Below are positions 30,801 through 53,536 of a DNA stretch of 64,000 nt, in pieces (positions within the stretch are counted from its first letter, which is position 1; each line of letters opens with the position of its first letter). The notes below the pieces were generated by a model that was not told where the DNA came from, ran no database searches, and was given only the letters and a program-made list of their open reading frames with translations. Location of the stretch: the IMG/VR virus record IMGVR_UViG_3300009194_000007, positions 1 to 64,000 of that record. The stretch is one strand, 5' to 3'. The position numbers and the translations under genes are program-made. The stretch is from a virus.

Positions 30801-33164
30801 CTGCGTAGGACCGAGATTGAACTGGGTAGTACCATCGGTCAGGGTAGCAATCAAATCGCCGTTAGAATCGACAGTGAGCGTGTCTAGCCACACATTCGGT
30901 TTACCGTCGATGAGTCCGATGATCTGATCACCCGCAAGATCAAGAGACGCCACCAGTTCACGATCTGCATTGATCGAAAACGCAGTAATGTAATCGGCAT
31001 CAGCACCATCAATGACGCCGGGACGATACTCGGTTCCATCTGCCATGGTCATGACAAATTCACGAGTGCCGCTTTCAATGGTGATAGTATCAATCAGTTG
31101 TGCATTATCGCCATTTACGCCGGGGACAATAAACTGACTACCATCAGACATATCGATGGTGTATTGGTCATTGGCGAACGTTATTGTTGTCGGATAAGGC
31201 GCATCGGTACCATCAATCGGACCCACGGTAAGGTCTTTGGAAGACCCGTCCGGTTGACGCATTTCGGCAATCAGAGTCTTAACCTTATTGACGGTATCAA
31301 CACGAAAAGCGGTCGGGTATGCGCCATCGACGCCGGTATAACCTTCGATATCCTTGAAGGTCAGAGTAGTACCATCAGACATATTGAACTGAAGGCTACG
31401 ATCACTTTGAATGCCAGCCCCATCGAGCGGGAAATAGCCATCCAGACCGTCCTTTCCATCAACCCCATCGGTGCCTCGAACCGGACCAAAGGTTGCAGTA
31501 GTGCCGTCAGACAGTGTGACATTGAGGTTGCCGGTGGCATCATCGACCAGAGCATCATTAACACCATTGATCGTCACATCAAAACTGCCTGTATCGAAGG
31601 TGAAGGTCAACGTGGTTCCATTGATAGCGATATCTGTCAGAAGTCCACCGTTAACCCCATCGATGCCATGGATATCACCGAGATTGGCAGTCGAACCATC
31701 GGCAAAAGTAAAAATCAGTTCAGAATTGACCATATCGACTTGAACTTGCGTCGGTTCCCTAACAACACCGACATCATAGGTTGCACCAAGAACAGATTGG
31801 AGAACCATGTGATTGGTGTCGCTGTCGATTGACATGGAAATGATGACATCACCAACCTGACCATTCAGACCATCGGTTTGCCCGGCTTCAATATCCGGCA
31901 GGGTAGGATCGGTGAGCGAGAACGTCAGAACACCTTTCGGGGAGATAGATGCCTTATCGATTTTGACTGCATCGACATGAATCAAGGCTTGGTCGCCATT
32001 CATGTCATCTACCACATGAAGGACACCTTGATCGATATAGGCATCCGTAACAGACCCACCATCGACCGCATCTTTTCCATCCTTACCAACGATCTTACCA
32101 CACGGGAGTGTATAGGCATTGCCATTGATGGTGAGATCAAGAAGCAGTGCGCCCGTGGAACCGGTATAGGCATTGGTCACCGTGGCATCACCAGCCACGT
32201 TTTCGATGCTGAAATTACCCGCAGACAGAGTGGTGCCATCGGTCAGCGTGAATGACAGTGCGAGATTGGTATCGTCATAATGGATAGTCTTGACGTAAGT
32301 GGAATCGGTACCATCAACACCATCCGTTCCATCTGACCCATCGATGTTACCCAGATCATTGATGTTCTGATTAGAATCCGTGAACATCAGATGACGCTCA
32401 CCATTCACATCAGTGATTTCAGTGCTGGCAACTTCATAATCAGCGGCAGGTTTGTTGATTACCGGAACGTTCTTGACAGTCAGTGTGGTGCCATCGGTCA
32501 AATCCATTCCAATGGTTTCTGAAGTCAAATCCAGATCAGCAGTGGTAATATAGACGCCATCCTCGCCCGGTTCACCAGTGATATCTTTATTGATCGTGGT
32601 GCTGGTTCCATCCGTGAATCCAATCGTTAGATAGCCATTCGAATCCAGCCCCGCTGATGCAATCTTTTGGCCCCCCGCCAGATCAGAAATGTTACCAACG
32701 ATGGTGGAAGCACCGGTACCATCGATAAATTCCACGTCCCCATTGGGGTGGATGGTAATCGTGGAAGTCGTTTCACCATCAGTTCCGACAATACCGGTAA
32801 AGGTATTGGACGTGCCATCATCCTCGCTTACCGTAAGATCGCCGTTGGTCATGGTGATGTTATCGACACCAATGGCATCGTGACCCACCACGGAGCCCGC
32901 GATGAAAGAAGAACCATCGGACAGGGTAACTTCAAGGTCTTCTCCCGTGATTACCATGGTATCGATACCAATGGCATCTTTACCGTGATACGAGGAATAG
33001 TCCATCGCGTTAAGGTGGTCTTTGACGACCTTGGCGAGTGACGGGATGGTTTTGTGTTCTAGGTTAATTACAGCCGTGTCGTCCTTGCTGATTACATCTC
33101 GATACAGTTCAGATGCTTGGACGCACCGGGCAATAGCTAGGCGGTAGTCATTGATCGTTGCCAT
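27876..33164 (-). CDS. Giant tail fibre with C-terminal seven-blade propeller (fibre B)
   Basis: 1,762 residues from the ATG at 33164, which has GGAG 6 bases upstream (33179 is the in-frame alternative). Residues 1-60 are a helical attachment region (YRLAIARCVQASELYRDV). From about 65 to 1030 runs a repeat of about 40-45 residues of the form (D/N)GxL..TLSDGTTxxxGxVxGxDG, beta-structured with GxDGxxG turns. About 1080-1480 holds FN3-like domains. The last 290 residues are seven WD-like blades, GHTxxVxxVAVDSSGNVYSGS.D.TVKKIDP.GSEVWTFS. Fibre A upstream is a full-length paralogue. The propeller is expected at the distal tip as the receptor binder. Confidence 0.85.
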   Translation of the reverse strand: MATINDYRLAIARCVQASELYRDVISKDDTAVINLEHKTIPSLAKVVKDHLNAMDYSSYHGKDAIGIDTMVITGEDLEVTLSDGSSFIAGSVVGHDAIGVDNITMTNGDLTVSEDDGTSNTFTGIVGTDGETTSTITIHPNGDVEFIDGTGASTIVGNISDLAGGQKIASAGLDSNGYLTIGFTDGTSTTINKDITGEPGEDGVYITTADLDLTSETIGMDLTDGTTLTVKNVPVINKPAADYEVASTEITDVNGERHLMFTDSNQNINDLGNIDGSDGTDGVDGTDSTYVKTIHYDDTNLALSFTLTDGTTLSAGNFSIENVAGDATVTNAYTGSTGALLLDLTINGNAYTLPCGKIVGKDGKDAVDGGSVTDAYIDQGVLHVVDDMNGDQALIHVDAVKIDKASISPKGVLTFSLTDPTLPDIEAGQTDGLNGQVGDVIISMSIDSDTNHMVLQSVLGATYDVGVVREPTQVQVDMVNSELIFTFADGSTANLGDIHGIDGVNGGLLTDIAINGTTLTFTFDTGSFDVTINGVNDALVDDATGNLNVTLSDGTTATFGPVRGTDGVDGKDGLDGYFPLDGAGIQSDRSLQFNMSDGTTLTFKDIEGYTGVDGAYPTAFRVDTVNKVKTLIAEMRQPDGSSKDLTVGPIDGTDAPYPTTITFANDQYTIDMSDGSQFIVPGVNGDNAQLIDTITIESGTREFVMTMADGTEYRPGVIDGADADYITAFSINADRELVASLDLAGDQIIGLIDGKPNVWLDTLTVDSNGDLIATLTDGTTQFNLGPTQGVDVTNVYLTPDLKIAADTSDGNTVTSTVSLDRTINSAGIDANDDLFIDVANQPTPIIAGNIPPGTDAVRIDSMYVASDRLKLERTDGTIDDLGPLKRTYVSGAYLTANRELVVQLSDGTETPPKAVLGADGRDVVDAYIDIDGTLVITMSDSEIIRPGIIKGDDGLSVSSSSIVNGELIFTMADTTQINAGFVDADFGFNPWDALDAPYDEGQTVTHMGDAYMAIRQTSQEPPGEDWMKVRAPGDAYDQRAPLLISPINGNVAEGEKPYLLGTKFGKFFSVDERLYRQFEIDVEGGDFSNPIYTANENFDGHQVTMALDPTKTYIWHARDVNASTGYVSIWSKTGTFTVPSAYIQTPSVASMVADTTQIDSVVGFIGSPYTRNGVSNSHIASDWVIRDADTQEVIYESLNDTTNLTKISIPFGILQVSRNYEVRLRYHGDDGHSSSWSSWLAFQTKDKFTFAIKPLLTYLGSDRNATPAEPRFRATFNDYEFIKDDLYGEPRATAQWQVTKVSDGSVVWETQSRFVEIEDMIVSESLTSGVQYEIHVRYSGGNYAGPSDWSDPVQFTPSYSIADPVLSTSYDVNAFPYAGGSFSVAPFSVTNEKIVSVDWEVVSIDTGEVLVGDYINFDKPTTFKFEVDGKTYGLTDAKVRVRFHGQYYTTPWAEMSFTFAEYVPIYVYSGSTDQTVKKIDPDGSEVWTFSGHTKTVNGVTVDYSGNVYSGSNDYAVKKIDPDGAEVWTFSGHTNNVMGVAVDSSGNVYSGSADNTVKKIDPNGSEVWTFNGHTNVVRSVAVDSSGNVYSGSYDQTVKKIDPDGSEVWTFSGHTNAVYSVAVDSSGNVYSGSGSADNTVKKIDPNGSEVWTFSGHTNIVMGVAVDSSGNVYSGSYDNTVKKIDPNGSEVWTFSGHTGYVRGVAVDSSGNVYSGSADNTVKKIDPDGNEVWTFSGHTSYVNSVACTKIQTELVKPVLIKSKYTA
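27885..27892 (-). promoter_or_regulatory. Late-promoter motif CTAAATAC before the FN3 cassette array
   Basis: Minus-strand CTAAATAC inside the last codons of the upstream fibre gene, 22 bases before the ATG at 27863. The octamer encodes residues SKY, so coding and promoter constraints coincide. Confidence 0.5.
27935..28769 (-). repeat. Seven near-identical 120-bp propeller blade repeats, fibre B
   Basis: Tandem units of 40 codons (one unit has 42 through an extra GS in GSGSADN near 28265-28280). Copies differ mainly at the residues after GS, after D in SxD, after GHT and three to four residues later. Nucleotide identity between copies is very high, including silent positions, and they match those of fibre A at 33255-34090. 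Confidence 0.9.
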
Positions 33165-33194
33165 CGATATCTCCATCATTAAGATTTTTCAATG

Positions 33195-33246: not shown

Positions 33247-36200
33247 TTAGTGCTGGTCAACGGCTACTCCCATGACATAATTCGTATGTCCACTGAACGT
33301 CCAAACTTCAGCCCCATCAGGATCAATCTTTTTGACAGTGTTATCATAAGCACCACTGTAGACATTACCAGAGGAATCAACGGCCACTGATCGAACAACA
33401 TTCGTATGTCCACTGAATGTCCAAATTTCAGTTCCGTTAGGATCAATCTTCTTAACAGTCTGGTCATAAGACCCACTGTAGACATTACCAGAGGAATCAA
33501 CGGCCACTGATCGAACAACATTCGTATGTCCACTGAATGTCCAAATTTCAGTTCCGTTAGGATCAATCTTCTTAACAGTCTGGTCAGAAGAACCACTGTA
33601 GACATTGCCAGAAGAGTCAACGGCTACGCCGTTAACAGCATTCGTATGCCCACTGAATGTCCAAATTTCAGTTCCGTTAGGATCAATCTTCTTAACAGTC
33701 TGGTCAGAAGAACCACTGTAGACATTGCCTGACGAATCAACGGCCACACCCCAAACATTACTCGTATGTCCACTGAACGTCCAAACTTCATTTCCGTTAG
33801 GATCAATCTTCTTAACAGTCTGGTCATAAGACCCACTGTAGACATTGCCTGACGAATCAACGGCTACGCTATAAACATTATTCGTATGCCCACTGAATGT
33901 CCAAACTTCACTTCCGTTAGGATCAATCTTCTTAACGGTGTCGTCCTGAGAACCACTGTAGACATTACCAGAAGAGTCAACGGCCACACCCCAAACATTA
34001 TTCGTATGCCCACTGAATGTCCAAACTTCACTTCCGTTAGGATCAATCTTCTTAACGGTGTCGTCGTAAGAACCACTGTAAGAATTGATAGGGACGATGC
34101 TTATGGTGAACACGCTCAGATCAGTAGACCAATCACTTGTCACTGAACTTCCATTGAATCGAACCCGAATCAAAAGATCACTGGAAATGTAATCAGCAGG
34201 AATATTTACATTCACTGACTCCAAGTTGGTAGTGTCACCAAGAGATTCCCATACCACAGTCTGAGTTACAGGTTGAACCACCTGCCAATCAGTGCTGACG
34301 TGAGTATCGTTAACACCATAGAAAGCAGAAGCAGACACCAAACCATCAAGCGGGAACGCATTCACATCTTCGGTAGTTGAAATCACCGGAGTGTCAATGT
34401 AAGCCGCTGTCGTAACATCCTGCCAGTTACTCCACGCTGTCCAACCGAAACGCTCTGCCTGATATCGCACACGCGCCTGATAGGTTTCATTCAGTGCCAG
34501 TGCCGGAGATACGGTGATGTCTTGAAGGTTCGTGGTATCTCCATAGGAACTGAACATCATAACACCGTCAGACTTGCGAACGACTTCCCAATCACTTGCC
34601 ACATGCGTATCCGTGTATCCACCCAAAACGCTCAGGGGCGTTGACAGGAAACGCGGGGTGGTTGAGGCTTGGGTTGCATCCCTACCACTATAAGCAACAC
34701 TAGGCGCACCCAGATAGTCGAAAGACGCTTCGGTTGTAAAGGTCACCGCCGCACTCCAAGCGGAAACCAGTGCGCTAGAGTTATAACGTACCTGAACCTG
34801 ATACTCGGTAGACGGAGACAGATCGCCCATCGGAACGTACCAAGAAGTCAGGTTGATCGTATCCGCCAGTGAGGAAGACACCACGGTACCACCAGCCGTT
34901 TCGATAACTTGCCAATCGGTGCTGACATGAGTTTCAGAACCAGTACCAGCCGTAACAGCAAACGGACTAGAAGTAAACGCCGTGGCACCAGAAGCCGCAG
35001 CCGGGTCTTCATTCGAATCAAGAGACACAACAGGCTGATCGATATACGCAGTGGGCGTAGTGAACGAACCAGAATCACTCCAATCACTGATATACCCAGT
35101 CAATGCACTCACATCACGGCAGCGCCAGATATAAGCAGACCCGGAAGTTAGGGCAGTTGCCACTTCATGACTGTCAGAGTTTTCTTGAGCCGTATAAATC
35201 GGTGCACTGAAATCCCCAGTGGAAACGTCTACCTGAAACTCACGGTAGTCACGCGGATCACCAGATACAATCGGAGCAAACGGAGAGCCGACCAAATCAG
35301 GATTCAGGTTCTCAGCCGTTCCAGACGGAGATACAATGGTCGGTTTGCGGATTTCGGTAATCTCATCACCAAACGCAAACGCACGCCATTCGGTAGACGG
35401 CGGTTCGGTCGTTGCCCCATCCACCAGTGCGATATACATGCCACCGTTGTGAACAACAACACGATCCTGTTGATAACTGTTGCCCGTTTCCCAGAGGGTC
35501 AGACCGGCACCAGAACCCACGTTACCCGCACGCTCGGTAGACCCATCGGTATAGGTAATAACCAGATCACCATTCAGGAACACTTCAGCCTTGTCGATAG
35601 CAAGACCCGCAGACCCCATGACATTACCAACCAGAATGTCACCATCACGTCTCATTTGGAATGTCAGGTCTTCATTGGCATCGATGGTCGCCCCAGTCAC
35701 ATAACGACCGTCCAGACCATTCACACGGCCCGCGTTGATGGTAGACGAATCAGACAGGGTGATGATCAGATCGCCAGTCGAAAGATCAATGCTGGATACT
35801 TCGATGCGGCTGATATTACCAACCGGGATCACCGTCCCATCGGTGAGCGTTACACTCACATCATCGTTGGCATCAATAGAAGCAGATGCCATGGACGTGC
35901 CATCGGTCGCCTTAACCACACCCGGAACCAGAACCGTGCCATCGGTCAACATCAGTTCCAATTCGCCATCGGTGTTGACGTTAGCAGAATCAATACCACG
36001 ACCCAGTTGACCTGCATCGATAGTCGTTCCGTCCGTCATGTCGAAGACCAGACGATCAGACAAATCGATTGTGGCATCCACGATACCCACGCCGTCCACG
36101 GCTTGGCTATACGGGATGCTAGTGGTTGTCCCATCGGTCAGAGTGGTGGTGACATCGGTATCAGTTGACACCATGGTATCGATACCAACCGCATCAACAC

Positions 36201-38445
36201 CTTTCACGGAAGGAATTGAAACGCTGGTAGAATCCGAAAGATCAATGTTCAGATTCGTTCCATCGAATGCCATGTTAGTAATGGTTCGACCGTCTTCACC
36301 CTTAACCATAGGCACACTGGTAGAAGTGCCATCGGTCAGAGCGATATTCAGATTGGTTCCATCGTAACTCAGGGTATCAATCGAAATGCCATCCTGACCC
36401 GCAAGCCCAGAGAACTGAGTAATGGTACCGTCTGACATGGTGAACACGAGATTGTCATTGGCATCGATAGTAACACTGTCCATCGATACACCATCAACCC
36501 CTTTGATAGCCGGAACAGTGACAGTCGATGAATCAGACAGACTAATCAGAAGATCAGTGCCGTCAAAATTGATCGTCGTTACCCCAACGCCATCGGTACC
36601 ATCCGCACCAACGATGTCAGATACGATCTTTTGTGATCCGTCTTCGAGGGTGATGATGAGTGATTCACTTTGAACCTCGATAGAACTGACGGAAGCACCA
36701 TCCTTGCCATCGGCACCATCAGTCCCAACCACATTTCCGCAAGGGAAGATAGTTCCATCGTACAGTTCGATGTTGAGATCACCCGCGCTGTCAATCGAGG
36801 CATCCTTGATGTTTCGAGAAACAGGACCAGTGGTGAAATCGCCAGACTGCGACGCGGTGAAAGTGAACGTGCCCGTGGTATTATCGAATGACACACCAGT
36901 GATAGTGTCACCATCAGTACCATCAGTCCCCACAATGCCCGTAAACGTCTTCTGAGAGCCGTCAGACAGGGTGATGACCAGATCATTGCCACTCAGTGCG
37001 GCGTTCGTCTCAGTGGGTGCAAAGACGCTTCCAGAGGTGGTTACGGTATTGCCATCAGAGAAAGTGAAGGTGAGTAGTCCCGACGCATCCATGGTCACAT
37101 TGGAAACAGAGACACCATCGACACCATCGACACCGCGCACAACGCCCACATTCTTGTCGAAGGTAGTTGCATCGCTACGGGTATAGGTAAGAATGAGTTC
37201 GCCAGTGGTTTGATCCACATTGGCAGAGGTCAGAACACTCCGATCCACATCACCGGCTGTCATGGTCGAACCATCAGACATGGTGAAGGTCAGGGTGTCC
37301 CCATTGAAGGTGGCAGCAGTGATACCAACACCATCAACACCATCAACCCCATCCTTACCATCGATAACGCCCAGATCGTAAGTTTTAAGATTGCTGCCAT
37401 CCCAAACGGTCAGCGTCAGAACTCCAGTGTTCGGGTCTTTGGTGGCATCCGCAATGCTGACGTTGGAGGCATCGATAACCGTCTTCTTGACCATCCCGAC
37501 CGGCAGAGTAGAACCGTCAGAGAAATCGAAGACCAGTTCGCCCGTTGTATTGATAGATGCATTGGTAATATCTTTACCGTCAGCACCATCAATACCATTG
37601 GTCCCATCAAGACCGGTTACGCGACCCGTATCAATGGTGGTACCATCAGACAGGGTAATGATGAGGTGCCCTTCGGTAGCCGGATCGGTGCTGATAGTGG
37701 CACTCTGGACTGACTTGGTAGTTCCATCGATCACCGTCTTGCTGACCTTACCGGCGATAATAGTATCACCATTGGACATCAGAAGGTTAAGCTGACCCTT
37801 GCCATCCACATAGGCGGTAACCACGTTAAGACCGTTAGCACCTTTGGCACCAACAACGCGACCCACATTTTCAACCGTGCCATCGGTATAGACAACAACC
37901 AGATCACCTTCGTTGGTAATGTCTGCATCCTGAGCAGCAACCCCACCAAACTGAGTCACATCGCCAGCGTCGATAGTGCTACCATCCGACAGATCAACCT
38001 TGAGTCGTCCGGTGTCGATATAGGCTTTGGTAACATTCACCCCATCCGCACCAACGACTCGACCCACGTTGAAGTTCGTGCCATCGTCCAGAGTAATTAC
38101 CAGATCAGTACCAACGATAGCGGCATTGCTAACCGACTTACCATCTTTCCCTTCGACCCGACCAAGATTCAGAGAAATGCCATTGGTGAGATCGATAATC
38201 AGGTTGCCACTTGCATCGATTTTAGCGGTGCTGAGGCCAATCGCATCTTCACCATCCAGAGCGCCGCTGGCAACCAGCGACGACAGGTAGAGATGAACAC
38301 GACGAGCCAGAGAAGGAACAGTTTCACCATTCGCATTCAGAATGACTTCTTCTGTCTTACTCTTTGAAAGGATTTCATTGATAAGACGATTGACTTCCTG
38401 CGCCTGTTGCGCGGAGTCATACAGCATTTGTTCAAGTGAGTTCAT
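33247..38445 (-). CDS. Giant tail fibre with C-terminal seven-blade propeller (fibre A)
   Basis: 1,732 residues, the same plan as fibre B. A helical head (MNSLEQMLYDSAQQAQEVNRL) is followed by about 1,000 residues of collagen-like/beta repeat (NASINTTGELVFDFSDGS; GADGKDG turns), four FN3-like domains (for example YIWRCRDVSALTGYISDW) and seven nearly identical propeller blades. The protein ends in the seventh blade, so the last strand probably closes with the N-terminal edge of blade 1. FN3 domains and repeat rods diverge from fibre B far more than the blades do. It precedes fibre B with a terminator and promoter between. A chaperone-like gene lies just upstream. Confidence 0.85.
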   Translation of the reverse strand: MNSLEQMLYDSAQQAQEVNRLINEILSKSKTEEVILNANGETVPSLARRVHLYLSSLVASGALDGEDAIGLSTAKIDASGNLIIDLTNGISLNLGRVEGKDGKSVSNAAIVGTDLVITLDDGTNFNVGRVVGADGVNVTKAYIDTGRLKVDLSDGSTIDAGDVTQFGGVAAQDADITNEGDLVVVYTDGTVENVGRVVGAKGANGLNVVTAYVDGKGQLNLLMSNGDTIIAGKVSKTVIDGTTKSVQSATISTDPATEGHLIITLSDGTTIDTGRVTGLDGTNGIDGADGKDITNASINTTGELVFDFSDGSTLPVGMVKKTVIDASNVSIADATKDPNTGVLTLTVWDGSNLKTYDLGVIDGKDGVDGVDGVGITAATFNGDTLTFTMSDGSTMTAGDVDRSVLTSANVDQTTGELILTYTRSDATTFDKNVGVVRGVDGVDGVSVSNVTMDASGLLTFTFSDGNTVTTSGSVFAPTETNAALSGNDLVITLSDGSQKTFTGIVGTDGTDGDTITGVSFDNTTGTFTFTASQSGDFTTGPVSRNIKDASIDSAGDLNIELYDGTIFPCGNVVGTDGADGKDGASVSSIEVQSESLIITLEDGSQKIVSDIVGADGTDGVGVTTINFDGTDLLISLSDSSTVTVPAIKGVDGVSMDSVTIDANDNLVFTMSDGTITQFSGLAGQDGISIDTLSYDGTNLNIALTDGTSTSVPMVKGEDGRTITNMAFDGTNLNIDLSDSTSVSIPSVKGVDAVGIDTMVSTDTDVTTTLTDGTTTSIPYSQAVDGVGIVDATIDLSDRLVFDMTDGTTIDAGQLGRGIDSANVNTDGELELMLTDGTVLVPGVVKATDGTSMASASIDANDDVSVTLTDGTVIPVGNISRIEVSSIDLSTGDLIITLSDSSTINAGRVNGLDGRYVTGATIDANEDLTFQMRRDGDILVGNVMGSAGLAIDKAEVFLNGDLVITYTDGSTERAGNVGSGAGLTLWETGNSYQQDRVVVHNGGMYIALVDGATTEPPSTEWRAFAFGDEITEIRKPTIVSPSGTAENLNPDLVGSPFAPIVSGDPRDYREFQVDVSTGDFSAPIYTAQENSDSHEVATALTSGSAYIWRCRDVSALTGYISDWSDSGSFTTPTAYIDQPVVSLDSNEDPAAASGATAFTSSPFAVTAGTGSETHVSTDWQVIETAGGTVVSSSLADTINLTSWYVPMGDLSPSTEYQVQVRYNSSALVSAWSAAVTFTTEASFDYLGAPSVAYSGRDATQASTTPRFLSTPLSVLGGYTDTHVASDWEVVRKSDGVMMFSSYGDTTNLQDITVSPALALNETYQARVRYQAERFGWTAWSNWQDVTTAAYIDTPVISTTEDVNAFPLDGLVSASAFYGVNDTHVSTDWQVVQPVTQTVVWESLGDTTNLESVNVNIPADYISSDLLIRVRFNGSSVTSDWSTDLSVFTISIVPINSYSGSYDDTVKKIDPNGSEVWTFSGHTNNVWGVAVDSSGNVYSGSQDDTVKKIDPNGSEVWTFSGHTNNVYSVAVDSSGNVYSGSYDQTVKKIDPNGNEVWTFSGHTSNVWGVAVDSSGNVYSGSSDQTVKKIDPNGTEIWTFSGHTNAVNGVAVDSSGNVYSGSSDQTVKKIDPNGTEIWTFSGHTNVVRSVAVDSSGNVYSGSYDQTVKKIDPNGTEIWTFSGHTNVVRSVAVDSSGNVYSGAYDNTVKKIDPDGAEVWTFSGHTNYVMGVAVDQH
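33255..34090 (-). repeat. Seven near-identical 120-bp propeller blade repeats, fibre A
   Basis: Seven tandem 40-codon units. Units 4, 5 and 6 share the variant GTEIWTFS and differ at only a few codons; units 5 and 6 share GHTNVVRSV exactly. This suggests recent unit duplication or conversion within the array. Confidence 0.9.
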
Positions 38446-39814: not shown

Positions 39815-40223
39815 AGTAAGATGCGTTATCCCACCCACCCTTTCCAAACCAACGAACCCCACAATAGGCGATATAGGCTTTCCAGTTGGGCATCCCCATG
39901 GCTTTCAATCCTTCATAGAACAATCGATCCGCATAGGACTTGGAGTATTCATGATACAGTCGGCTGTAAATGTAATCATGAATCACCGAGGGCTTGCGAC
40001 CATACGAGGAAGCGGGCGGATACCAGAACCAAAACAGCTTAGGGACACTGGACAGGTCAGTAATGTAACCTGCCTCTACCACAATAGTGTCGCCTTCAAA
40101 CCAGACTTCGAAATTCTTGTCTACCCTGAACTTGTCTGCATCCTTATCCAACCACGGAACGAATGTATTCCTATCAATGTCCTGAAGATATAATCCAGTC
40201 AGGAATTTAATTTTTTGAGACAT
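39813..40223 (-). CDS. DUF1353-family protein
   Basis: 136 residues from the ATG at 40223 (MSQKIKFLTG; GGAG 10 bases upstream). Family hallmarks: VEAGYITDLSSVPKLFWFW, then PSVIHDYIYSRLY, ADRLFYEGLKAMG and the Trp-rich end VRWFGKGGWDN. DUF1353 proteins are frequent in phage tail and lysis neighbourhoods. The TDLSSVP and HDY elements recall an enzyme site, but no activity is established that I know of. It follows terL by 21 bases. Confidence 0.82.
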   Translation of the reverse strand: MSQKIKFLTGLYLQDIDRNTFVPWLDKDADKFRVDKNFEVWFEGDTIVVEAGYITDLSSVPKLFWFWYPPASSYGRKPSVIHDYIYSRLYHEYSKSYADRLFYEGLKAMGMPNWKAYIAYCGVRWFGKGGWDNASY

Positions 40224-40244
40224 GGCGTTGAAACTCCAAAGCAA

Positions 40245-41897
40245 TTAGAAAATGATCCCCCAGTCGGAATCATCCAAGGCATCACCCAGCGACACCTCGT
40301 TGAGTGTGTCGTAAACAAAATCCTCATAGTTGGACAATTGCTTCATCACCAACATGAGTAGTACCATGGCCATCACCCGATCATCCTTGGCTCCTGCTTC
40401 CGCCTTGAAGGTTGCACCATGTTTAGTGAACATCCTGAGTTCATTGAGTAGCTTGGCACTACGCAGGGTGAGTTTTCCTTCCTCAACCAAATCTTTCAAT
40501 TGGGTACATCCTTCCAACTTCTTTTTGTTGGTGGTATATAAACCCATCTTTCCAGTCGGGATACCGTGATCATTCACGTCATTGATCATCACCGCTTGGT
40601 TTAGAATGGGATCATCACTGTTTTCGATCAGACGAAGAATGCCATTCCCCAATCCATTGTTCTCGACCGTGTAATAGACTTCTCTTGCGCCTTCATTGAA
40701 CAGCAGATGCATGATGCGCAGGATGGTCTTGAAATAGTTGGTCTGGTTAATCGTGTTATTGGCGAACTCGGCTACCTGTTCAAAGGTATGCACATCGATG
40801 AACTGGATCGCATGGTTATCCTTCCCGACTCCTTCAGACACATCACACGCGAACGCAATGGTTCGGCCTTGAAAGGAATCCACATAGATTTCCATGTCCC
40901 CGTACTGGCGAATCGGATCAAGGGGCTTGATGGACTCGATCACTTGGGAGTTGATCAGTGAACTGTTATCGGAGAGCCATGCCCCTTCAAATTCCTGACG
41001 GTATTTGTTGATGCCCAGCTTGCGAATCATCATTTCTCGCCATTCTTCGGTGCGACCGGGGATTTTTGAATGGTCTACTTGGTGATACTTGAAACCATTC
41101 ATGCCCTCCATGGCACCAAACGACAATTCCGCGTATTTCCCAGTGGATGAGTTAGGGGTTGAGATGATGACGACCTTAGCCGAACTCTCTTCCCCCGCCG
41201 CTTCCAAGGACGGCATGAACCCCGTGTAAAATTCCTCAGCCACTTGGGGTTTGACGAACGCAAATTCGTCAATGATCGCCATGCCAGTGATGGTTCGTCC
41301 GCGAAAGGTTTGTTCGGATGTTACCTGAACGAAAATAGAAGACCCGTTGGTGAACTTGACTTCCCCCTTGTTGTACACGGTACAGGGAGGCTTCAGGAAA
41401 TCTTCGAGGGATTCATAGGAATATTTGATTCGATCCATGAAATCCTTGCAGTTGACGGACTTGTAGGAGGTGATGCCTACGGTCTTGTCATCTTCGAACA
41501 CCGCCATGTGAAGAGCGTATAACCCCATTACCGTGGTATTGTGAGACAGAACACCATCGCAGTAATACAAGTTATCGCCAGACACCGATAGATCGTACAT
41601 ATTTTCACGAACACCGGTTGCTTCAACTTTAACGACACGGGACGGGCCATCAATCGTATTGATGATGACCCCGACAGAATCCTTGGCGTATACCTCTTGG
41701 AAATCTTCGGTGATGAGAATGTGAGTGTCGGCACACTCAAGGGTCAATCCATTTTCCAATTCAACCCTATGGAGTTCATAGGGAACGGTTTTATTCGATG
41801 AATTGACATCTCTCCAACCATCGTGGGAAAGCACTTCCCACGATGACGTTTCCATTACCTCTTCAAACTTACGTGTTGTATTTTCGGACGGCTTCAT
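40245..41897 (-). CDS. 17: Terminase large subunit, C-terminal part, with N-terminal split-intein half (IntC-TerL)
   Basis: 550 residues starting at the ATG at 41897 (AGAGG 6 bases upstream). Residues 1-120 are the C-terminal intein half, residues 121-550 the C-extein (430 aa). The extein begins TTVMGLYALH, completing the Walker A left unfinished at the end of the other gene (RQCGK). MAIIDEFAF is Walker B, IISTPNSSTGK the coupling motif, and FACDVSEGVGKD with YYTVENNGLG and DRVMAMVLL the RNaseH-type nuclease. Spliced TerL would be 513 residues. It packages DNA through the portal. Until splicing, neither half can be an ATPase. Confidence 0.92.
   Translation of the reverse strand: MKPSENTTRKFEEVMETSSWEVLSHDGWRDVNSSNKTVPYELHRVELENGLTLECADTHILITEDFQEVYAKDSVGVIINTIDGPSRVVKVEATGVRENMYDLSVSGDNLYYCDGVLSHNTTVMGLYALHMAVFEDDKTVGITSYKSVNCKDFMDRIKYSYESLEDFLKPPCTVYNKGEVKFTNGSSIFVQVTSEQTFRGRTITGMAIIDEFAFVKPQVAEEFYTGFMPSLEAAGEESSAKVVIISTPNSSTGKYAELSFGAMEGMNGFKYHQVDHSKIPGRTEEWREMMIRKLGINKYRQEFEGAWLSDNSSLINSQVIESIKPLDPIRQYGDMEIYVDSFQGRTIAFACDVSEGVGKDNHAIQFIDVHTFEQVAEFANNTINQTNYFKTILRIMHLLFNEGAREVYYTVENNGLGNGILRLIENSDDPILNQAVMINDVNDHGIPTGKMGLYTTNKKKLEGCTQLKDLVEEGKLTLRSAKLLNELRMFTKHGATFKAEAGAKDDRVMAMVLLMLVMKQLSNYEDFVYDTLNEVSLGDALDDSDWGIIF
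41538..41897 (-). mobile_element. Split intein, C-terminal half (IntC, 120 aa)
   Basis: Contains the block B element LECADTHILIT with its T..H pair, block F NMYDLSVSGDNLYYCDG and block G VLSHN followed by Thr+1. Because it includes block B, the split lies between blocks A and B. That is the atypical arrangement, with a short N-half and a long C-half, known from the AceL-TerL intein. Confidence 0.9.
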
Positions 41898-43026
41898 TGA
41901 CAACCTCTAGTAGTTCGTCTTTGTGTTCTATTTCTACACATTCGGTCCATCCATCGAATTTCTTATCTTCTGATTCGATCAGAATGGATAGTTGATTTCC
42001 GAGTATGTATTTCTTGATCTCACATTCCCTGTTAAAATTCGTAAACCGGTCTGCATGATAGACTTTGATTACGTCTTTGATCGTAACAGAAGGAAATCGT
42101 TGTGACAGATACTTGGAAGTCACACCAATCTTGATAAAGGATTTATCATAACCGAGCGGCTGATATTCAATCACATACAGCTTGGTATCGATCTGATTGA
42201 ACGGATCATCGGGGTCCATCAATTGGGTTTTTGGTTCGCTGTGCTTCCAGAAGCCTTTCTTGGCATTAATTTCGATCTTCTTTTCCTCGGGCAGTGCTTC
42301 GAGTGACGCAAGCCATTTCTCTTGGCGCTCGTTCCAGCGACGAATGCCCTCTTCCTCGCCATACTTAGCAATTAGCTTTTCACGATTGAACGTGTTTTGA
42401 CGATCATAGTAAAGGCGCTGACCCTCTTCCTCACCGTAGCGTTCGGTCCAATAAGAAAGACGAGCGGTAACGCTGTTGTTGGCGTCTCGTGAAGCCACCG
42501 CTTTCTTCTTGGTTTCTTCCGATATATCGCCAGCGACGAATTTCTTGCTGAAAGGAGAAAATTTCCCTCCATGCTGGTAGCCCGGATTGTTTTCTCCTTT
42601 GACCCGTGACGCTTTCTTGTTCAATTTTTCCTTGGCATGTTCCTCGCCGTAGAGCAGCGTGTAAAACTCCATGTTCTCGGTCTTTTTAGGGTATTGCTGG
42701 CAAAGCAATACCTGTTGCCAGTAATCCGTCACTTCCTTGTTGTACTTGACGATCTTTGCAAGGTAGCTTTGCATCAGCTTGATCTTGTTGTTTCTATTCT
42801 CATTTGACATCGCTTTACCAAACATGTCACTGACCTCATCGGTGGTGAGATTGGCAAGGCGATTGAAAACGGTGACGAACTGATCAACGTCACCGATTTC
42901 TTCAACCGAAAGATCGACACCCATCCGTCTCGGGAATTTGGCTACCTTTGTAAGCATCTCATCGATTGTGAAGGTTTTGATTTTCTTCTTGTACCGCTTC
43001 GTGGAATTGCTCTGCCGTGAGTTCAT
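41869..43026 (-). CDS. Free-standing homing endonuclease between the terminase halves (GIY-YIG-like)
   Basis: 385 residues, ATG at 43026 with AGGAG 7 bases upstream. It overlaps the IntN gene by 68 bases and the IntC gene by 29. The N-terminal third is helical and basic (NSTKRYKKKIKTFTIDEM). The middle has repeats of the type YWTERYGEEEGQRLYYDRQ and LIAKYGEEEGIRRWNERQ, seen in phage homing nucleases, probably for DNA binding. The C-terminal 100 residues have LYVIEYQPLG, FIKIGVTSKYLSQRF and RECEIKKYIL, compatible with a GIY-YIG-type nuclease. It is predicted to cut intein-less terL alleles and spread the whole cassette. A late-promoter motif lies 32 bases upstream, within IntN. Confidence 0.75.
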   Translation of the reverse strand: MNSRQSNSTKRYKKKIKTFTIDEMLTKVAKFPRRMGVDLSVEEIGDVDQFVTVFNRLANLTTDEVSDMFGKAMSNENRNNKIKLMQSYLAKIVKYNKEVTDYWQQVLLCQQYPKKTENMEFYTLLYGEEHAKEKLNKKASRVKGENNPGYQHGGKFSPFSKKFVAGDISEETKKKAVASRDANNSVTARLSYWTERYGEEEGQRLYYDRQNTFNREKLIAKYGEEEGIRRWNERQEKWLASLEALPEEKKIEINAKKGFWKHSEPKTQLMDPDDPFNQIDTKLYVIEYQPLGYDKSFIKIGVTSKYLSQRFPSVTIKDVIKVYHADRFTNFNRECEIKKYILGNQLSILIESEDKKFDGWTECVEIEHKDELLEVVNEAVRKYNT

Positions 43027-43330
43027 AGATTTCTCCTGTGTGTTTGTTTCTCACGGTGTATTTAGTCATTTTGCCCGAGCACTTTCCACACTGTCTTGGC
43101 GCGTTTGAAATCAAATACCTTTCATTCTGAATGTCATCAAGCAATTCCTCTTGATACTCACGAGGATCAAACAATTGTTTTCCACGAGGACCAACCACAT
43201 AACAGTAATTGGTAAAGAAATACATCGGATCATCAGCACATTTCAGCCATTCATCGACTTCTTCCGATGTAAGGGGACGATCCTGCCCCGGCTTCTTGAC
43301 AACGCTGTGATCTACATTATATTCTGACAT
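42959..43330 (-). CDS. 17: Terminase large subunit, N-terminal part, with split-intein half (TerL-IntN)
   Basis: 123 residues. Residues 1-83 are N-extein: CADDPMYFFTNYCYVVGPRG and DPREYQEELLDDI match the gp17 N-terminal (adenine-binding Q) region, ending NAPRQCGK in the middle of the Walker A. Residue 84 is the intein Cys1. The frame ends 40 residues later. The remainder of the ATPase lies in a separate gene 1.1 kb downstream on the same strand. A late-promoter motif GTAAATAG lies 32-39 bases upstream. Confidence 0.9.
   Translation of the reverse strand: MSEYNVDHSVVKKPGQDRPLTSEEVDEWLKCADDPMYFFTNYCYVVGPRGKQLFDPREYQEELLDDIQNERYLISNAPRQCGKCSGKMTKYTVRNKHTGEIYELTAEQFHEAVQEENQNLHNR
42962..43081 (-). 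mobile_element. Split intein, N-terminal half (IntN, 40 aa)
   Basis: CSGKMTKYTVRNKHTGEIYE at residues 84-103, then a helix (ELTAEQFHEAVQEENQNLH). Cys1 is present. The half is only 40 residues, against about 90-100 for ordinary split inteins. It does not show the usual D-T strand pair of block A clearly, so catalysis should be tested. Confidence 0.8.
43058..43065 (-). promoter_or_regulatory. Late-promoter motif CTAAATAC inside IntN, before the homing endonuclease
   Basis: Minus-strand ACTAAATAC encodes TKY of IntN (residues 89-91) and lies 32-39 bases ahead of the endonuclease ATG. This is the same distance as for other late-box genes here, so I regard it as the nuclease's own promoter. In T4, I-TevI is also restricted to late expression. 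Confidence 0.55.
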
Positions 43331-43361
43331 GGCCTGTATACCTCTTTGTCTGGTTACAAAC

Positions 43362-43369
43362 CTATTTAC
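43362..43369 (-). promoter_or_regulatory. Late-promoter motif GTAAATAG before TerL-IntN
   Basis: Minus-strand CAGTAAATAGG 32-39 bases ahead of the ATG at 43330. Confidence 0.5.
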
Positions 43370-43388
43370 TGAAAAGAAAGGAATTGTG

Positions 43389-43529
43389 ATGAAAATGATA
43401 GAAACGGATCAATTGAAATCCGATCTGAAGAAACTGGTTTCAGTGAAGGCATGGCTGAAGGTCATTCACTACCTCCGGTGGGTACCGTATGTGAAGCAGT
43501 GTGTTCGGATGGTGAGTGGCATAAAGTGA
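43389..43529 (+). CDS. Short plus-strand frame, likely 5' part of a frame-split gene
   Basis: 47 codons, MKMIETDQLKSDLKK onward, with AAGGA 7 bases before the ATG, the only good ribosome site here. It overlaps the 109-codon frame at 43451 in the -1 direction. Either it is the true start of that protein with one base lost or gained, or it is a leader peptide. Confidence 0.4.
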   Translation: MKMIETDQLKSDLKKLVSVKAWLKVIHYLRWVPYVKQCVRMVSGIK

Positions 43530-49782: not shown

Positions 49783-50655
49783 TTAGAATCCGATGACTAG
49801 GTATCGAACACCTAGTTTCTCTGCATTGGTATTTACCCCGCCGATGCGGGTAGCCCGAAGTTTTGCACCACCTGTATTTTGCTCGATAGCCCGAATGAAG
49901 AAATCTGTCCCTTCATGGTAATTGGCGGGATCAACTTCATACCCCACGGGGATAACCATCAATGTCTTGTTGGGCATCGCTTGGGGGAATGTCACATTCA
50001 GATCGAAATAAGAATGAATGTGATTGAAACTGCTAGACGGGTCAGCAGTATTATAAACCGATGCAGCTTGAACCTCAGCATACTGAATGATGATCTCGCG
50101 CTTCTTGTCATCACTGGAATCCTTAACAGGAAACTTGAAGACGAAGGTATCATTGCCGAACAGACTTGCTCCAAGAATCCCTTCGAAAAGAGACAGGGGC
50201 GTAACCGCCTTAGAATCGTCTGTACCGGTCGATGTTTCTAACCCGGTAGCCAAGGCTACCAAGCCCGCGAAAGCATGTGTGGAGTCCATAGCAGCGAAAT
50301 TTGAGGCAGTGATAACCGCTGTGGTACTTGCCTTATCCGTTGCTTGAATATCTGTCGCCAATTCCACCACCCCAACAGACGAGGTAGTGGCATATTGGGT
50401 GACATTCTCTAGGAAACGAATCTTATTGTTCCATTGGTCAATCCATTTGGTCAGCGTTTTGACATCAGACGGATCGCCAGACGGTCGAACCGGTGCTTGT
50501 TCAAGGAAGTTTTGCACCGTAACCTTGACATCGGTGCCCTCCGGGGAAGAGGACACGTCCGATTTATCGACAATCACAACTTCATCATTGGCACCAATCG
50601 TGGTGACCTCTGTGAGTTCTGTAAAACGAATATACTTACCGAGTGTTGAAGCCAT
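49783..50655 (-). CDS. Tail fibre protein, 290 aa
   Basis: The start ATG at 50655 overlaps the stop of the upstream propeller gene (TAATG); starting at 50703 would add residues out of character. Contains TTSSVGVVELATDIQATDKA, the fibre repeat, then TPLSLFEGILGASLFGNDTF, and a C-terminal tip (FPQAMPNKTLMVIPVGYEVD; YLVIGF) related to that at 48902. Together they look like two subunits of short fibres. Confidence 0.72.
   Translation of the reverse strand: MASTLGKYIRFTELTEVTTIGANDEVVIVDKSDVSSSPEGTDVKVTVQNFLEQAPVRPSGDPSDVKTLTKWIDQWNNKIRFLENVTQYATTSSVGVVELATDIQATDKASTTAVITASNFAAMDSTHAFAGLVALATGLETSTGTDDSKAVTPLSLFEGILGASLFGNDTFVFKFPVKDSSDDKKREIIIQYAEVQAASVYNTADPSSSFNHIHSYFDLNVTFPQAMPNKTLMVIPVGYEVDPANYHEGTDFFIRAIEQNTGGAKLRATRIGGVNTNAEKLGVRYLVIGF
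49829..49836 (-). promoter_or_regulatory. Late-promoter motif GTAAATAC
   Basis: Minus-strand GGTAAATACC, 58-65 bases ahead of the ATG at 49771, inside the end of the upstream fibre gene. Confidence 0.45.
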
Positions 50656-52130
50656 TAGGGTGTTCCTGTAACTGGTTTCAATCCAGCCGCAATAGCAGCG
50701 CAAGCGTTCTCATTACCAACAAAGACCCAAACCTGATTACCGTTCGGGGTAATCTTCCTTACGGTCTGATCGATGCTGCCTGAGTACACATATCCCAAAT
50801 AGTCCACGTCCAATCCACGAACAATGTCCGTGTGACGCTCAAACTTCCAAATTTCTGAGCCGGTCGGATCGATTTTCCTTACTGTGTTATCGTCAGACCC
50901 GACATAAAGCACATCGTTAGCATCAACGACTAAGCAATGGCTGAAGTCGGTGAAATCGGATTTCTCCCAATCGCGCCCACGACTGGTGTTGAACTTCTTG
51001 ACCTTGAAGATGGTGTCGAACACCGACGCATAACAATTGCCCACAGAATCAGTTGCAATCGCTACCAGTTCTGAAGACTTGGTATCAAAGGCACCTGCGG
51101 TAACCAGTGTTCCGGTGGCATCATCTATTTCATAGACGTTACCGTTTCGATACCCGACCAGAATGTTGCCACTAGGCATGAACGCGAGGTCCATGGCATC
51201 CGCCGTATCGCCACTGATGATCCAGATCATATTACCCTGACGATCCATCTTCATGACGGTGCTATCGTTACCACACGAGTAGATATATTCGTTGTGATAT
51301 TTGATTGAACGAATCACGTCCGTATGAATCTGGCGTGACCACTCTTCGGTACCATCGGATTGGCGAAGTTTCTTGATTGAGAAATCACGCGATGCGCTGT
51401 AAACAAATACGTCATCAAGCGTTAGATCAGTCACCCAGTTAATATGACCCGTATATGACCATACTTCCTGATTGACCGAATTTATCTTGCGAACACTATT
51501 GTCTCCCCAATAGCCTGCATAGACCGGAATCCCATGATCATGATCCATCTGCGGAGGATCAACCGGGGGCGGTTCGATGGAGCAATCATACAAACTGGAA
51601 TCCATAAGGGTGAATGTCCAGATAACCTGAATATCAATCAGGCGTGAAATGGATCGCACACCGAATCGCTTGTAAGAGAACACAGTCCCATTACCAACTC
51701 GAAGCGTCGCCGAATTGTACTTGGCATTCACCTCGTTCGGGAACAAGGTGTCCATGATGTTCTTTCCATCCAGAAGCGTTGCCACTTCAAGAACATTTTC
51801 ATCAGGAAAACTGTAAACCATTTCAGTCGGATCAACCTGATAGATGACCTGTTGGTTCATGTCCGTAAAATTCTTCTTGGCGGGTCTTGGAAGAAAAATA
51901 GACCAGTCCCCGGTATCTTCACCGGCACCGTAGTCCTCACCCAAATAGAACGCACTGAACCGGTAGTCATCGTTCGTATCATCCAACGATAACCGTTTCC
52001 AAAGGGCATTCATACCCTTCTCGGTGATTACATTCTTATCAGAAAATTCAGACAGGGTTGCCCCTGTCGCCTTGTCAATCTCACGAATGGTAAGAATGCC
52101 CTGAATACCGGCAAGTTGTTTTGGTTTCAT
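50655..52130 (-). CDS. Baseplate-proximal protein with seven-blade propeller, copy 2
   Basis: 491 residues. Residues 1-200 form an N-terminal domain (NVITEKGMNALWKRLSLD; VGNGTVFSYKRFGVRSISR; IQVIWTFTL) shared with the gene at 52133. From about 208 there are diverged blades: VYAGYWGDNSVRKINS, VYSASRDFSIKKLRQSDG, VLYVGSDDNTVRKIDPTGSE, VYSGSIDQTVRKITPNGNQV. The last two are close to the fibre A and B blades, so this protein shares the ancestry. Attached through its N-domain to the tail, it may add another binding face. Confidence 0.75.
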   Translation of the reverse strand: MKPKQLAGIQGILTIREIDKATGATLSEFSDKNVITEKGMNALWKRLSLDDTNDDYRFSAFYLGEDYGAGEDTGDWSIFLPRPAKKNFTDMNQQVIYQVDPTEMVYSFPDENVLEVATLLDGKNIMDTLFPNEVNAKYNSATLRVGNGTVFSYKRFGVRSISRLIDIQVIWTFTLMDSSLYDCSIEPPPVDPPQMDHDHGIPVYAGYWGDNSVRKINSVNQEVWSYTGHINWVTDLTLDDVFVYSASRDFSIKKLRQSDGTEEWSRQIHTDVIRSIKYHNEYIYSCGNDSTVMKMDRQGNMIWIISGDTADAMDLAFMPSGNILVGYRNGNVYEIDDATGTLVTAGAFDTKSSELVAIATDSVGNCYASVFDTIFKVKKFNTSRGRDWEKSDFTDFSHCLVVDANDVLYVGSDDNTVRKIDPTGSEIWKFERHTDIVRGLDVDYLGYVYSGSIDQTVRKITPNGNQVWVFVGNENACAAIAAGLKPVTGTP

Positions 52131-52132
52131 AA

Positions 52133-53536
52133 TTAGTTCCTATTAACTGCCATGTCATTGACATTATCTTCTTCTTGGGCATACATCCAAATCTGATTGC
52201 CATCAGAGTTCAATTTGCGGATGTACCCATCAGTAGACAAAACGAAAATGGAGTTGCTGGCATCGACAATGACCTTTTGAATCCATTCTGTGCTATCCGT
52301 ATTCTTCCACACCTCGGTCTTTGCGGGTGACACTTTACGAACGGTTTTATCATTGGACCCAGCCACCACGTTGTTTAGAGAATCCCCGGATACCGATGTC
52401 ACAAAATCCGTGAACCCGTTATACTCCCATTCGAATGATCCATCAAAATCGAACTTACGAAGAAGATTATCACTAGACCCGGTATAAACTGAATCGTTGG
52501 CAGCAAATGCCACATCCAGAATCGTTGACGGATGATAGTTGCTCGTCCACACCAGCCCTCCATTCGAATTGAGTTTCGTCATGACATTGTTAGACGGGGT
52601 ATAAATGAGAATGCTTCCATTGCTCGCTACATCTCCCACCACTACCGGCATACCGGCATCATACGTCCACAGGGGCAAGCCATCCGAGTTCAACTTGACG
52701 ATGGTTCCATCATTCGAGGACGTGTACAGGTTGCCTCTGTCGTCTGTCTTGAGTCCGGTGATGGTGTCAGTATGTGCATCATAGCGCCATTGTTCCACGC
52801 CACTGCGATTCATTTTAATGATCACATGATCAATGGCACTAGCCGAATAGATGTTCTTGGTCAAATCCGATGCAACACAGATGACTTCATTATCATGGAG
52901 GCGTGAAGAAAAGGCCAATGACCCAGTAATATCCAATTCATTGACCTCATTCCTACCATCGGTGCAGTAATAGGCCAGAGTGATTCCATCATCGAAGATA
53001 CCCTCGTTACAGTATTCCGCCGCGTTCTTCAGGGTAATCGTCCAGACGATCTTGATATTCACATCACGGGTAATGGATCGAATTGGAAACCGCTTGTAGG
53101 CAAACGTCTCCCCGTTACCGAAACGCAAAGTCGCCGAACTGAAATCCGCTGAGAACTGATCCGAAAAACTCTGCGCCATGGTCATAGCACCATCAATGAT
53201 CGCCGTGACCTTGATAGTCGGGTCCAATGGATAGTCATAAAAGACCTGATCGACCTTGGCGAAATAAATTGCCGTCTGATCAGCACTGGTGAAATCCCGA
53301 GTCGCAGGTTCGGGATTAAAGACAGACCATGTAGCCGGATCACCAAAATCTGTACCAATGGCAATGGTTTCGAATTTAAAAATTCCACTGGAATCGGACA
53401 TGGAGATACGACGCCACATCTGCCCAATGCCTTTATCCGTGACAATATTATCAGAGGGACCGCAAATCTCGATTCGTTTTCCAGTTTTGCGGTCGTATGT
53501 TTCTATGGTGACTTCACCTTTTGCATATTCGTACAT
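52133..53536 (-). CDS. Baseplate-proximal protein with beta-propeller, copy 1
   Basis: 467 residues, paralogue of the neighbour at 50655. The N-domain shows NIVTDKGIGQMWRRISMSD, FGNGETFAYKRFPIRSITR and IKIVWTITL. From about 195 the blades read NIYSASAIDHVIIKMNRSGV, NLYTSSNDGTIVKLNSDGLP and VVAGSNDKTVRKVSPAKTEV. It follows the tail-protein I-like gene and has a late-promoter motif upstream. Function as receptor binding or tail decoration is inference. Confidence 0.75.
   Translation of the reverse strand: MYEYAKGEVTIETYDRKTGKRIEICGPSDNIVTDKGIGQMWRRISMSDSSGIFKFETIAIGTDFGDPATWSVFNPEPATRDFTSADQTAIYFAKVDQVFYDYPLDPTIKVTAIIDGAMTMAQSFSDQFSADFSSATLRFGNGETFAYKRFPIRSITRDVNIKIVWTITLKNAAEYCNEGIFDDGITLAYYCTDGRNEVNELDITGSLAFSSRLHDNEVICVASDLTKNIYSASAIDHVIIKMNRSGVEQWRYDAHTDTITGLKTDDRGNLYTSSNDGTIVKLNSDGLPLWTYDAGMPVVVGDVASNGSILIYTPSNNVMTKLNSNGGLVWTSNYHPSTILDVAFAANDSVYTGSSDNLLRKFDFDGSFEWEYNGFTDFVTSVSGDSLNNVVAGSNDKTVRKVSPAKTEVWKNTDSTEWIQKVIVDASNSIFVLSTDGYIRKLNSDGNQIWMYAQEEDNVNDMAVNRN

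What the first reader, a model, noticed from the sequence alone, without database searches (positions are those of the whole stretch)
40245..43330. Terminase split by an atypical split intein with an endonuclease gene between the halves
TerL is two genes: TerL-N (83 aa) plus IntN (40 aa), and IntC (120 aa) plus TerL-C (430 aa). The IntN ends after block A; block B is in IntC. Cys1 and the H-N|T junction are present, and the extein joins exactly in the Walker A (RQCGK|TTV). Established: AceL-TerL is a known atypically split intein in a phage terminase, so the class is not new. Not known to me: this sequence with a GIY-YIG-like endonuclease overlapping both halves. DNA packaging would depend on trans-splicing.
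Basis: partly seen in the sequence, partly recalled or inferred. Interest (0 to 1): 0.8.

Follow-up and report, generated by a model that had tools for sequence, protein, structure and literature searches.

The report
Phage terminase fractured by split intein
A virus that infects bacteria carries its DNA-packaging motor gene in two pieces, each tagged with half of a self-removing protein splint (a split intein), with a selfish DNA-cutting enzyme gene between them; the same arrangement turns out to be common in related phages, so this is a good new example of a known kind.

Summary
On the minus strand, 43330→40245, TerL is two genes: TerL-N (83 aa) + IntN (40 aa), and IntC (120 aa from ATG 41897) + TerL-C (430 aa). 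An intact 385-aa endonuclease gene between them overlaps both (68 and 29 nt). Joined exteins align gaplessly across the RQCGK|TTV junction with an uninterrupted TerL (41.8% over full length). No other TerL is in the 101.6-kb record. IntC models confidently; its best PDB matches are Cat (consensus intein with atypical split site) and VidaL. No intron family is detected. The endonuclease has a shared recognition module plus a C-terminal GIY-YIG-like domain, the latter by sequence only.

It is not rare. Of 80 IMG/VR loci with the same module, 52 show TerN–HEG–IntC–TerC in order. Nearly all use an EDxHD-type nuclease; four of 52 non-redundant proteins, including this one, look GIY-YIG. Campylobacter phage F379 has the same GIY-YIG architecture; its relative CP20 has the intein contiguous (47 bp where F379 has 1159 bp). 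A fractured gene with a GIY-YIG endonuclease is published (AceL NrdHF). Verdict: new member of a known kind. The nuclease-domain exchange at one site is the most interesting part. Splicing and homing are untested.

The parts
43082..43330 (-). TerL N-extein (83 aa) ending ...RQCGK, the first half of Walker A
   Evidence: PHROG terminase large subunit profiles E=1.2e-20; aligns to Slickus01 TerL from residue 1
42959..43081 (-). IntN, 40 aa from Cys1 (CSGKMTKYTVRNKHTGEIYELTAEQFHEAVQEENQNLHNR), stop codon included in the coordinates; the last ~20 aa overlap the endonuclease gene
   Evidence: Cys1; same pattern as IntN of L002, L034, L039 etc.; on its own no intein match in PDB sequences, expected for 40 aa
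41869..43026 (-). free-standing putative homing endonuclease, 385 aa: recognition module about residues 139-250, GIY-YIG-like domain about residues 280-379
   Evidence: relatives in the same position in many phages; phrog_681 'endonuclease' E=1.8e-6 at 280-379; conserved Y, KIG.T, R, E with F379, L027, L056
41538..41897 (-). IntC, 120 aa (ATG 41897; longer TTG start 41903 possible), block B CADTH, ends SHN
   Evidence: Intein_splicing PF14890 E=7e-4, below its cut-off; CatC/gp41-1 matches; AF2 pLDDT 89, top PDB folds Cat and VidaL inteins
40245..41537 (-). TerL C-extein (430 aa), starts TTV, contains the rest of Walker A, Walker B and the RNase H-like nuclease
   Evidence: Terminase_6N 1.9e-8, Terminase_6C 8.9e-6; T4 gp17 structure 3ezk E=2e-36

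Best explanation
A fractured terminase gene: a selfish element made of an atypically (S2-type, after block A and helix 1) split class 1 intein plus a free-standing homing endonuclease gene, inserted at the GK|T codons of the Walker A motif of a T4-like phage TerL. Inferred working: the two TerL halves are translated separately (with the endonuclease from overlapping frames of one mRNA), IntN and IntC associate, Cys1, Asn120 (IntC) and Thr+1 carry out protein trans-splicing, and an intact TerL motor results. The endonuclease would cut an intein-less TerL in a co-infecting phage near these codons, so that repair copies IntN, endonuclease and IntC together. Shown here: the anatomy, homologies, intein fold, empty and filled sites in relatives. 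Inferred: splicing, cleavage, homing.
For: Joined exteins align end to end with an uninterrupted TerL, no gap at the junction. IntC fold matches Cat and VidaL inteins. Class 1 splicing residues present and conserved over 17 IntC. No other TerL in the record. 52 of 80 IMG/VR hits of the recognition module have the same four-part order. F379 versus CP20: about 95% identical flanks, 1159 bp with the endonuclease gene in F379 where CP20 has 47 bp and a contiguous intein. At the same TerL site Slicko01 carries a different contiguous intein and Slickus01 is empty, flanks 97% identical. Cr30 carries an endonuclease with the same module next to an uninterrupted TerL.
Against: No splicing, expression or cleavage data. 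IntN alone gives no significant intein match. The window's GIY-YIG domain does not reach any Pfam model itself and its AF2 model was too poor to use (pLDDT 51). The genome record may be incomplete, so an unsplit TerL elsewhere is not fully excluded.
Confidence: 0.9

Rival explanations
1. An RNA intron (group I or II) carrying the endonuclease joins the halves at the RNA level, as for the terL intron of phage ICP1 with a neighbouring T5orf172 gene.
For: A terL intron with a neighbouring T5orf172 endonuclease exists (PMC10448857); the terL of Campylobacter phage IBB_35 was described as interrupted by an intein and an intron enclosing a homing endonuclease (PMC3322345).
Against: No intron family match in 40200-43400 at E<=1, only two weak unrelated hits; the flanking coding sequence is intein, with a confident Hint-type fold and exact H-N|T and |C junctions; protein halves in the same position are conserved in dozens of phages.
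Confidence: 0.03
2. The TerL gene is broken: a dead terminase in a defective phage, or an assembly artefact.
For: Gene in two pieces, short IntN; some relatives have a frameshifted endonuclease (L024, L045).
Against: All ORFs are intact, start contexts carry ribosome-binding-like sites, splicing motifs are kept, and the same arrangement is found in many contigs and in sequenced isolates.
Confidence: 0.03
3. The halves work as two subunits without splicing (genes in pieces, as for the T-even-type ribonucleotide reductase split by an endonuclease gene).
For: Such a split enzyme that retains function is known (reference in PMC3322345).
Against: The break lies inside Walker A between K and T, where non-covalent reconstitution is unlikely; the conserved intein fold and splicing residues would be unexplained.
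Confidence: 0.03

Closest known systems
AceL-TerL and GOS-TerL atypically split inteins, and the consensus design Cat (PDB 6DSL)
   Same: Intein in TerL, split after the first helix (S2 site, PMC13014065), short IntN, long IntC; IntC matches CatC by sequence (E=4e-4) and as best fold match
   Different: IntN is 40 aa against 15-37 aa published, the extra tail overlapping the endonuclease frame; only about 25% identical to CatC; here the gene between the halves is seen
Fractured genes of Dassa et al. 2009 (not held; cited in PMC6892783 and PMC12350094), with EDxHD/Vsr-like endonucleases
   Same: Two gene halves with split intein halves and a free-standing homing endonuclease gene between them
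   Different: Endonuclease here ends in a GIY-YIG-like domain instead of EDxHD, while keeping the recognition module found with EDxHD domains at the same site
Campylobacter phage F379 terminase locus (MT932329)
   Same: TerN-IntN / T5orf172-like endonuclease / IntC-TerC, homologous endonuclease with 26% identity over 63%
   Different: Junction RQ|SSKS, a few residues upstream of GK|TT; proteins only distantly similar; annotated as an intron-associated endonuclease
AceL NrdHF fractured gene (PMC7891396)
   Different: Class 3 intein, canonical split site, different host gene

Membership tests
Class 1 (Cys1) split intein | Cys1, block B histidine, penultimate His and terminal Asn, Cys/Ser/Thr +1 | tested here: met
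   CSG..., CADTH, SHN|T
Class 1 (Cys1) split intein | Hint (intein) fold | tested here: met
   IntC AF2 pLDDT 89; best PDB matches are inteins, E down to 1.9e-6; IntN not modelled
Class 1 (Cys1) split intein | Splices in trans | not testable with these tools
   needs expression of both halves
Atypically split (S2) TerL intein, AceL-TerL type | Host gene TerL, split after block A and first helix, short IntN | tested here: met
   Split position and host gene; S2 definition from PMC13014065; CatC match
Atypically split (S2) TerL intein, AceL-TerL type | Direct sequence comparison with AceL-TerL itself | not tested
   AceL-TerL was not among the PDB search results; only the consensus Cat was compared
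Fractured gene (split intein plus free-standing homing endonuclease) | Endonuclease gene between the two halves, same direction | tested here: met
GIY-YIG homing endonuclease | GIY-YIG domain with catalytic Tyr, Arg and Glu | tested here: inconclusive
   Motif residues Y, KIG.T, R, E conserved with three relatives that match MUG113/T5orf172 (E down to 7e-8); phrog_681 E=2e-7; hhalign to the relatives prob 82%; no own Pfam match, no usable structure
GIY-YIG homing endonuclease | Cuts the intein-less allele | not testable with these tools
   needs purified protein
EDxHD/Vsr-like homing endonuclease | (I/V)IEF.G..WH-type motif in the C-terminal domain | tested here: not met
   absent in the window protein; seen by pattern in 42 and by eye in most of the other 6 of the 48 remaining non-redundant relatives not classed GIY-YIG

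The most novel reading that the evidence does not exclude
One recognition module at one insertion site (the P-loop GK|T codons of TerL) is combined with two unrelated nuclease domains, GIY-YIG and EDxHD, in fractured genes; and the same module-plus-split-intein family also occupies the GK|T codons of other phage P-loop ATPase genes, so one selfish element family may have spread through different phage motors, exchanging nuclease domains on the way.
Probability: 0.5. Interest if true: 0.55.

Novelty: new member of a known kind. Interest (0 to 1): 0.35.

Why it matters
It adds a clear, intact example of a fractured terminase and, through its relatives, a natural series (empty site, contiguous intein, split intein without endonuclease, split intein with endonuclease) for testing how inteins become split. 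The F379/CP20 pair links the split and contiguous states of one intein to the presence of an endonuclease gene. New short-IntN split inteins are also useful as protein ligation tools.

Tried and rejected
AF2 of the endonuclease with 11 relatives: pLDDT 51, so no fold search was made. PDB sequence search with the endonuclease and with the four-member GIY profile: nothing relevant. PDB search with IntN: nothing. Viral contig search with the single IntC-TerC sequence: no confirmed relative, so no close relative of this phage was found. RNA intron: none detected. Multiple independent origins of the GIY-YIG version: the tree needs 3 changes, but one clade is not rejected (p-AU 0.124), and F379 sits on a long branch. 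Dassa et al. 2009 is not held, so the exact genes and endonucleases they listed could not be checked. The intein profile PF14890 found only the TerL intein in the record but misses the RecA-like intein, so it is not a census. PF10544 (T5orf172) finds nothing in the record.

Full report
Observation. The window lies in a 101,610-bp IMG/VR virus record. On the minus strand three intact genes follow each other: 43330-42959 (123 aa), 43026-41869 (385 aa) and 41903-40245 (552 aa). The first is 83 aa of terminase large subunit ending RQCGK followed by a 40-aa segment from Cys; the third begins with 120 aa (from ATG 41897) ending SHN, then TTV and 430 aa of terminase. Profiles identify both outer parts as terminase large subunit. 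The overlaps are 68 and 29 nt. The endonuclease start has AGGAG upstream, inside the IntN coding sequence. Joined exteins align over their full length with the uninterrupted TerL of Alishewanella phage Slickus01 at 41.8% identity, with no gap at the junction. Only this TerL occurs in the record.

Intein. IntC matches gp41-1, CatC and VidaL by sequence, weakly matches intein profiles and, modelled with 16 relatives, has pLDDT 89; the two best PDB folds are Cat, the consensus intein with atypical split site, and VidaL. Invariant residues in 17 IntC include the block B His and the final HN. The split lies after block A and the first helix, the S2 position described for AceL TerL and GOS TerL (PMC13014065). 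At 40 aa, IntN is slightly longer than the 15-37 aa published there; its tail is shared with the endonuclease frame.

Endonuclease. Residues about 139-250 form a module conserved in many phage proteins. The C-terminal 100 residues match phrog_681 endonuclease and align with three relatives (F379, L027, L056); three of the four members match MUG113/T5orf172 of Pfam (GIY-YIG-type families, from general knowledge), and the motif Tyr, KIG.T, Arg and Glu are kept in all four. The window domain itself has no Pfam match and no usable structure model, so GIY-YIG is likely but not proven.

Relatives. Searching viral contigs with the module gave 80 loci; in 52 the order is TerN, endonuclease, IntC, TerC, and the others are cut by contig ends, rearranged or lie in other genes. 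Among 52 non-redundant proteins (including the window, F379 and Cr30) four have the GIY-YIG-like end; the others show an EDxHD-type motif, 42 by pattern (some only on reading a neighbouring frame) and most of the last 6 by eye. Campylobacter phage F379 has the same GIY-YIG architecture, and CP20, about 95% identical in the flanks, has a contiguous intein, with 47 bp where F379 has 1159 bp. PhiW-14 and Atu_ph07 have split TerL inteins without the endonuclease. Slicko01 carries a contiguous intein at the same site (annotated HNH endonuclease domain protein) and Slickus01 is empty, flanks 97% identical. Cr30 has a module-bearing endonuclease beside an uninterrupted TerL. Together these are the states expected of a mobile element at this site.

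Mechanism. Inferred: trans-splicing by Cys1, Asn and Thr+1 restores TerL, and the endonuclease drives transfer into intein-less TerL. An RNA intron is not detected. No step of activity was tested here.

Known or new. Fractured genes, AceL-TerL type inteins, and a fractured gene with a GIY-YIG endonuclease (AceL NrdHF, PMC7891396) are all described, and IBB_35 terL was reported interrupted by an intein and an endonuclease gene (PMC3322345). So this is a new member. The shared recognition module with two nuclease types at one site, and its spread to other P-loop genes, were not found described in the papers I could read, but Dassa et al. 2009 could not be read.

Noticed in passing
16096-18069 (-), insert 16945-17889: A RecA/UvsX-like recombinase ORF with a second, contiguous 315-aa intein in Walker A (GISG|C...GN|SGKS); the insert matches the AceL NrdHF intein by sequence (E=2.9e-6).
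   Followed up: partly
L075, L094, L097-L099, L085, L088, L090, L091, L087, L092, L096, L076: The same endonuclease module with a split intein sits at Walker A-like GK|T/S sites in other genes that look like Clp-type AAA+, SbcC/gp46-like, DnaB-like helicase and another P-loop protein; gene identities by eye only.
   Followed up: partly
L004/L005, L027: TerL broken twice: a second split intein with its own gene between halves at the DE|CAF region, giving five genes.
   Followed up: partly
L016 versus L013: Campylobacter phages F379 and CP20 carry split and contiguous forms of one TerL intein with about 95% identical flanks, 1159 bp against 47 bp.
   Followed up: yes
27950-28768 and 33257-34080 (genes 27876-33179 and 33247-38445, -): Two neighbouring ~1750-aa fibre-like proteins end in similar WD40/propeller repeats encoded by 120-bp tandem DNA repeats; further propeller proteins at 50655-53536.
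   Followed up: no
L054, L055: The module-bearing endonuclease gene lies between terminase halves but on the opposite strand.
   Followed up: no
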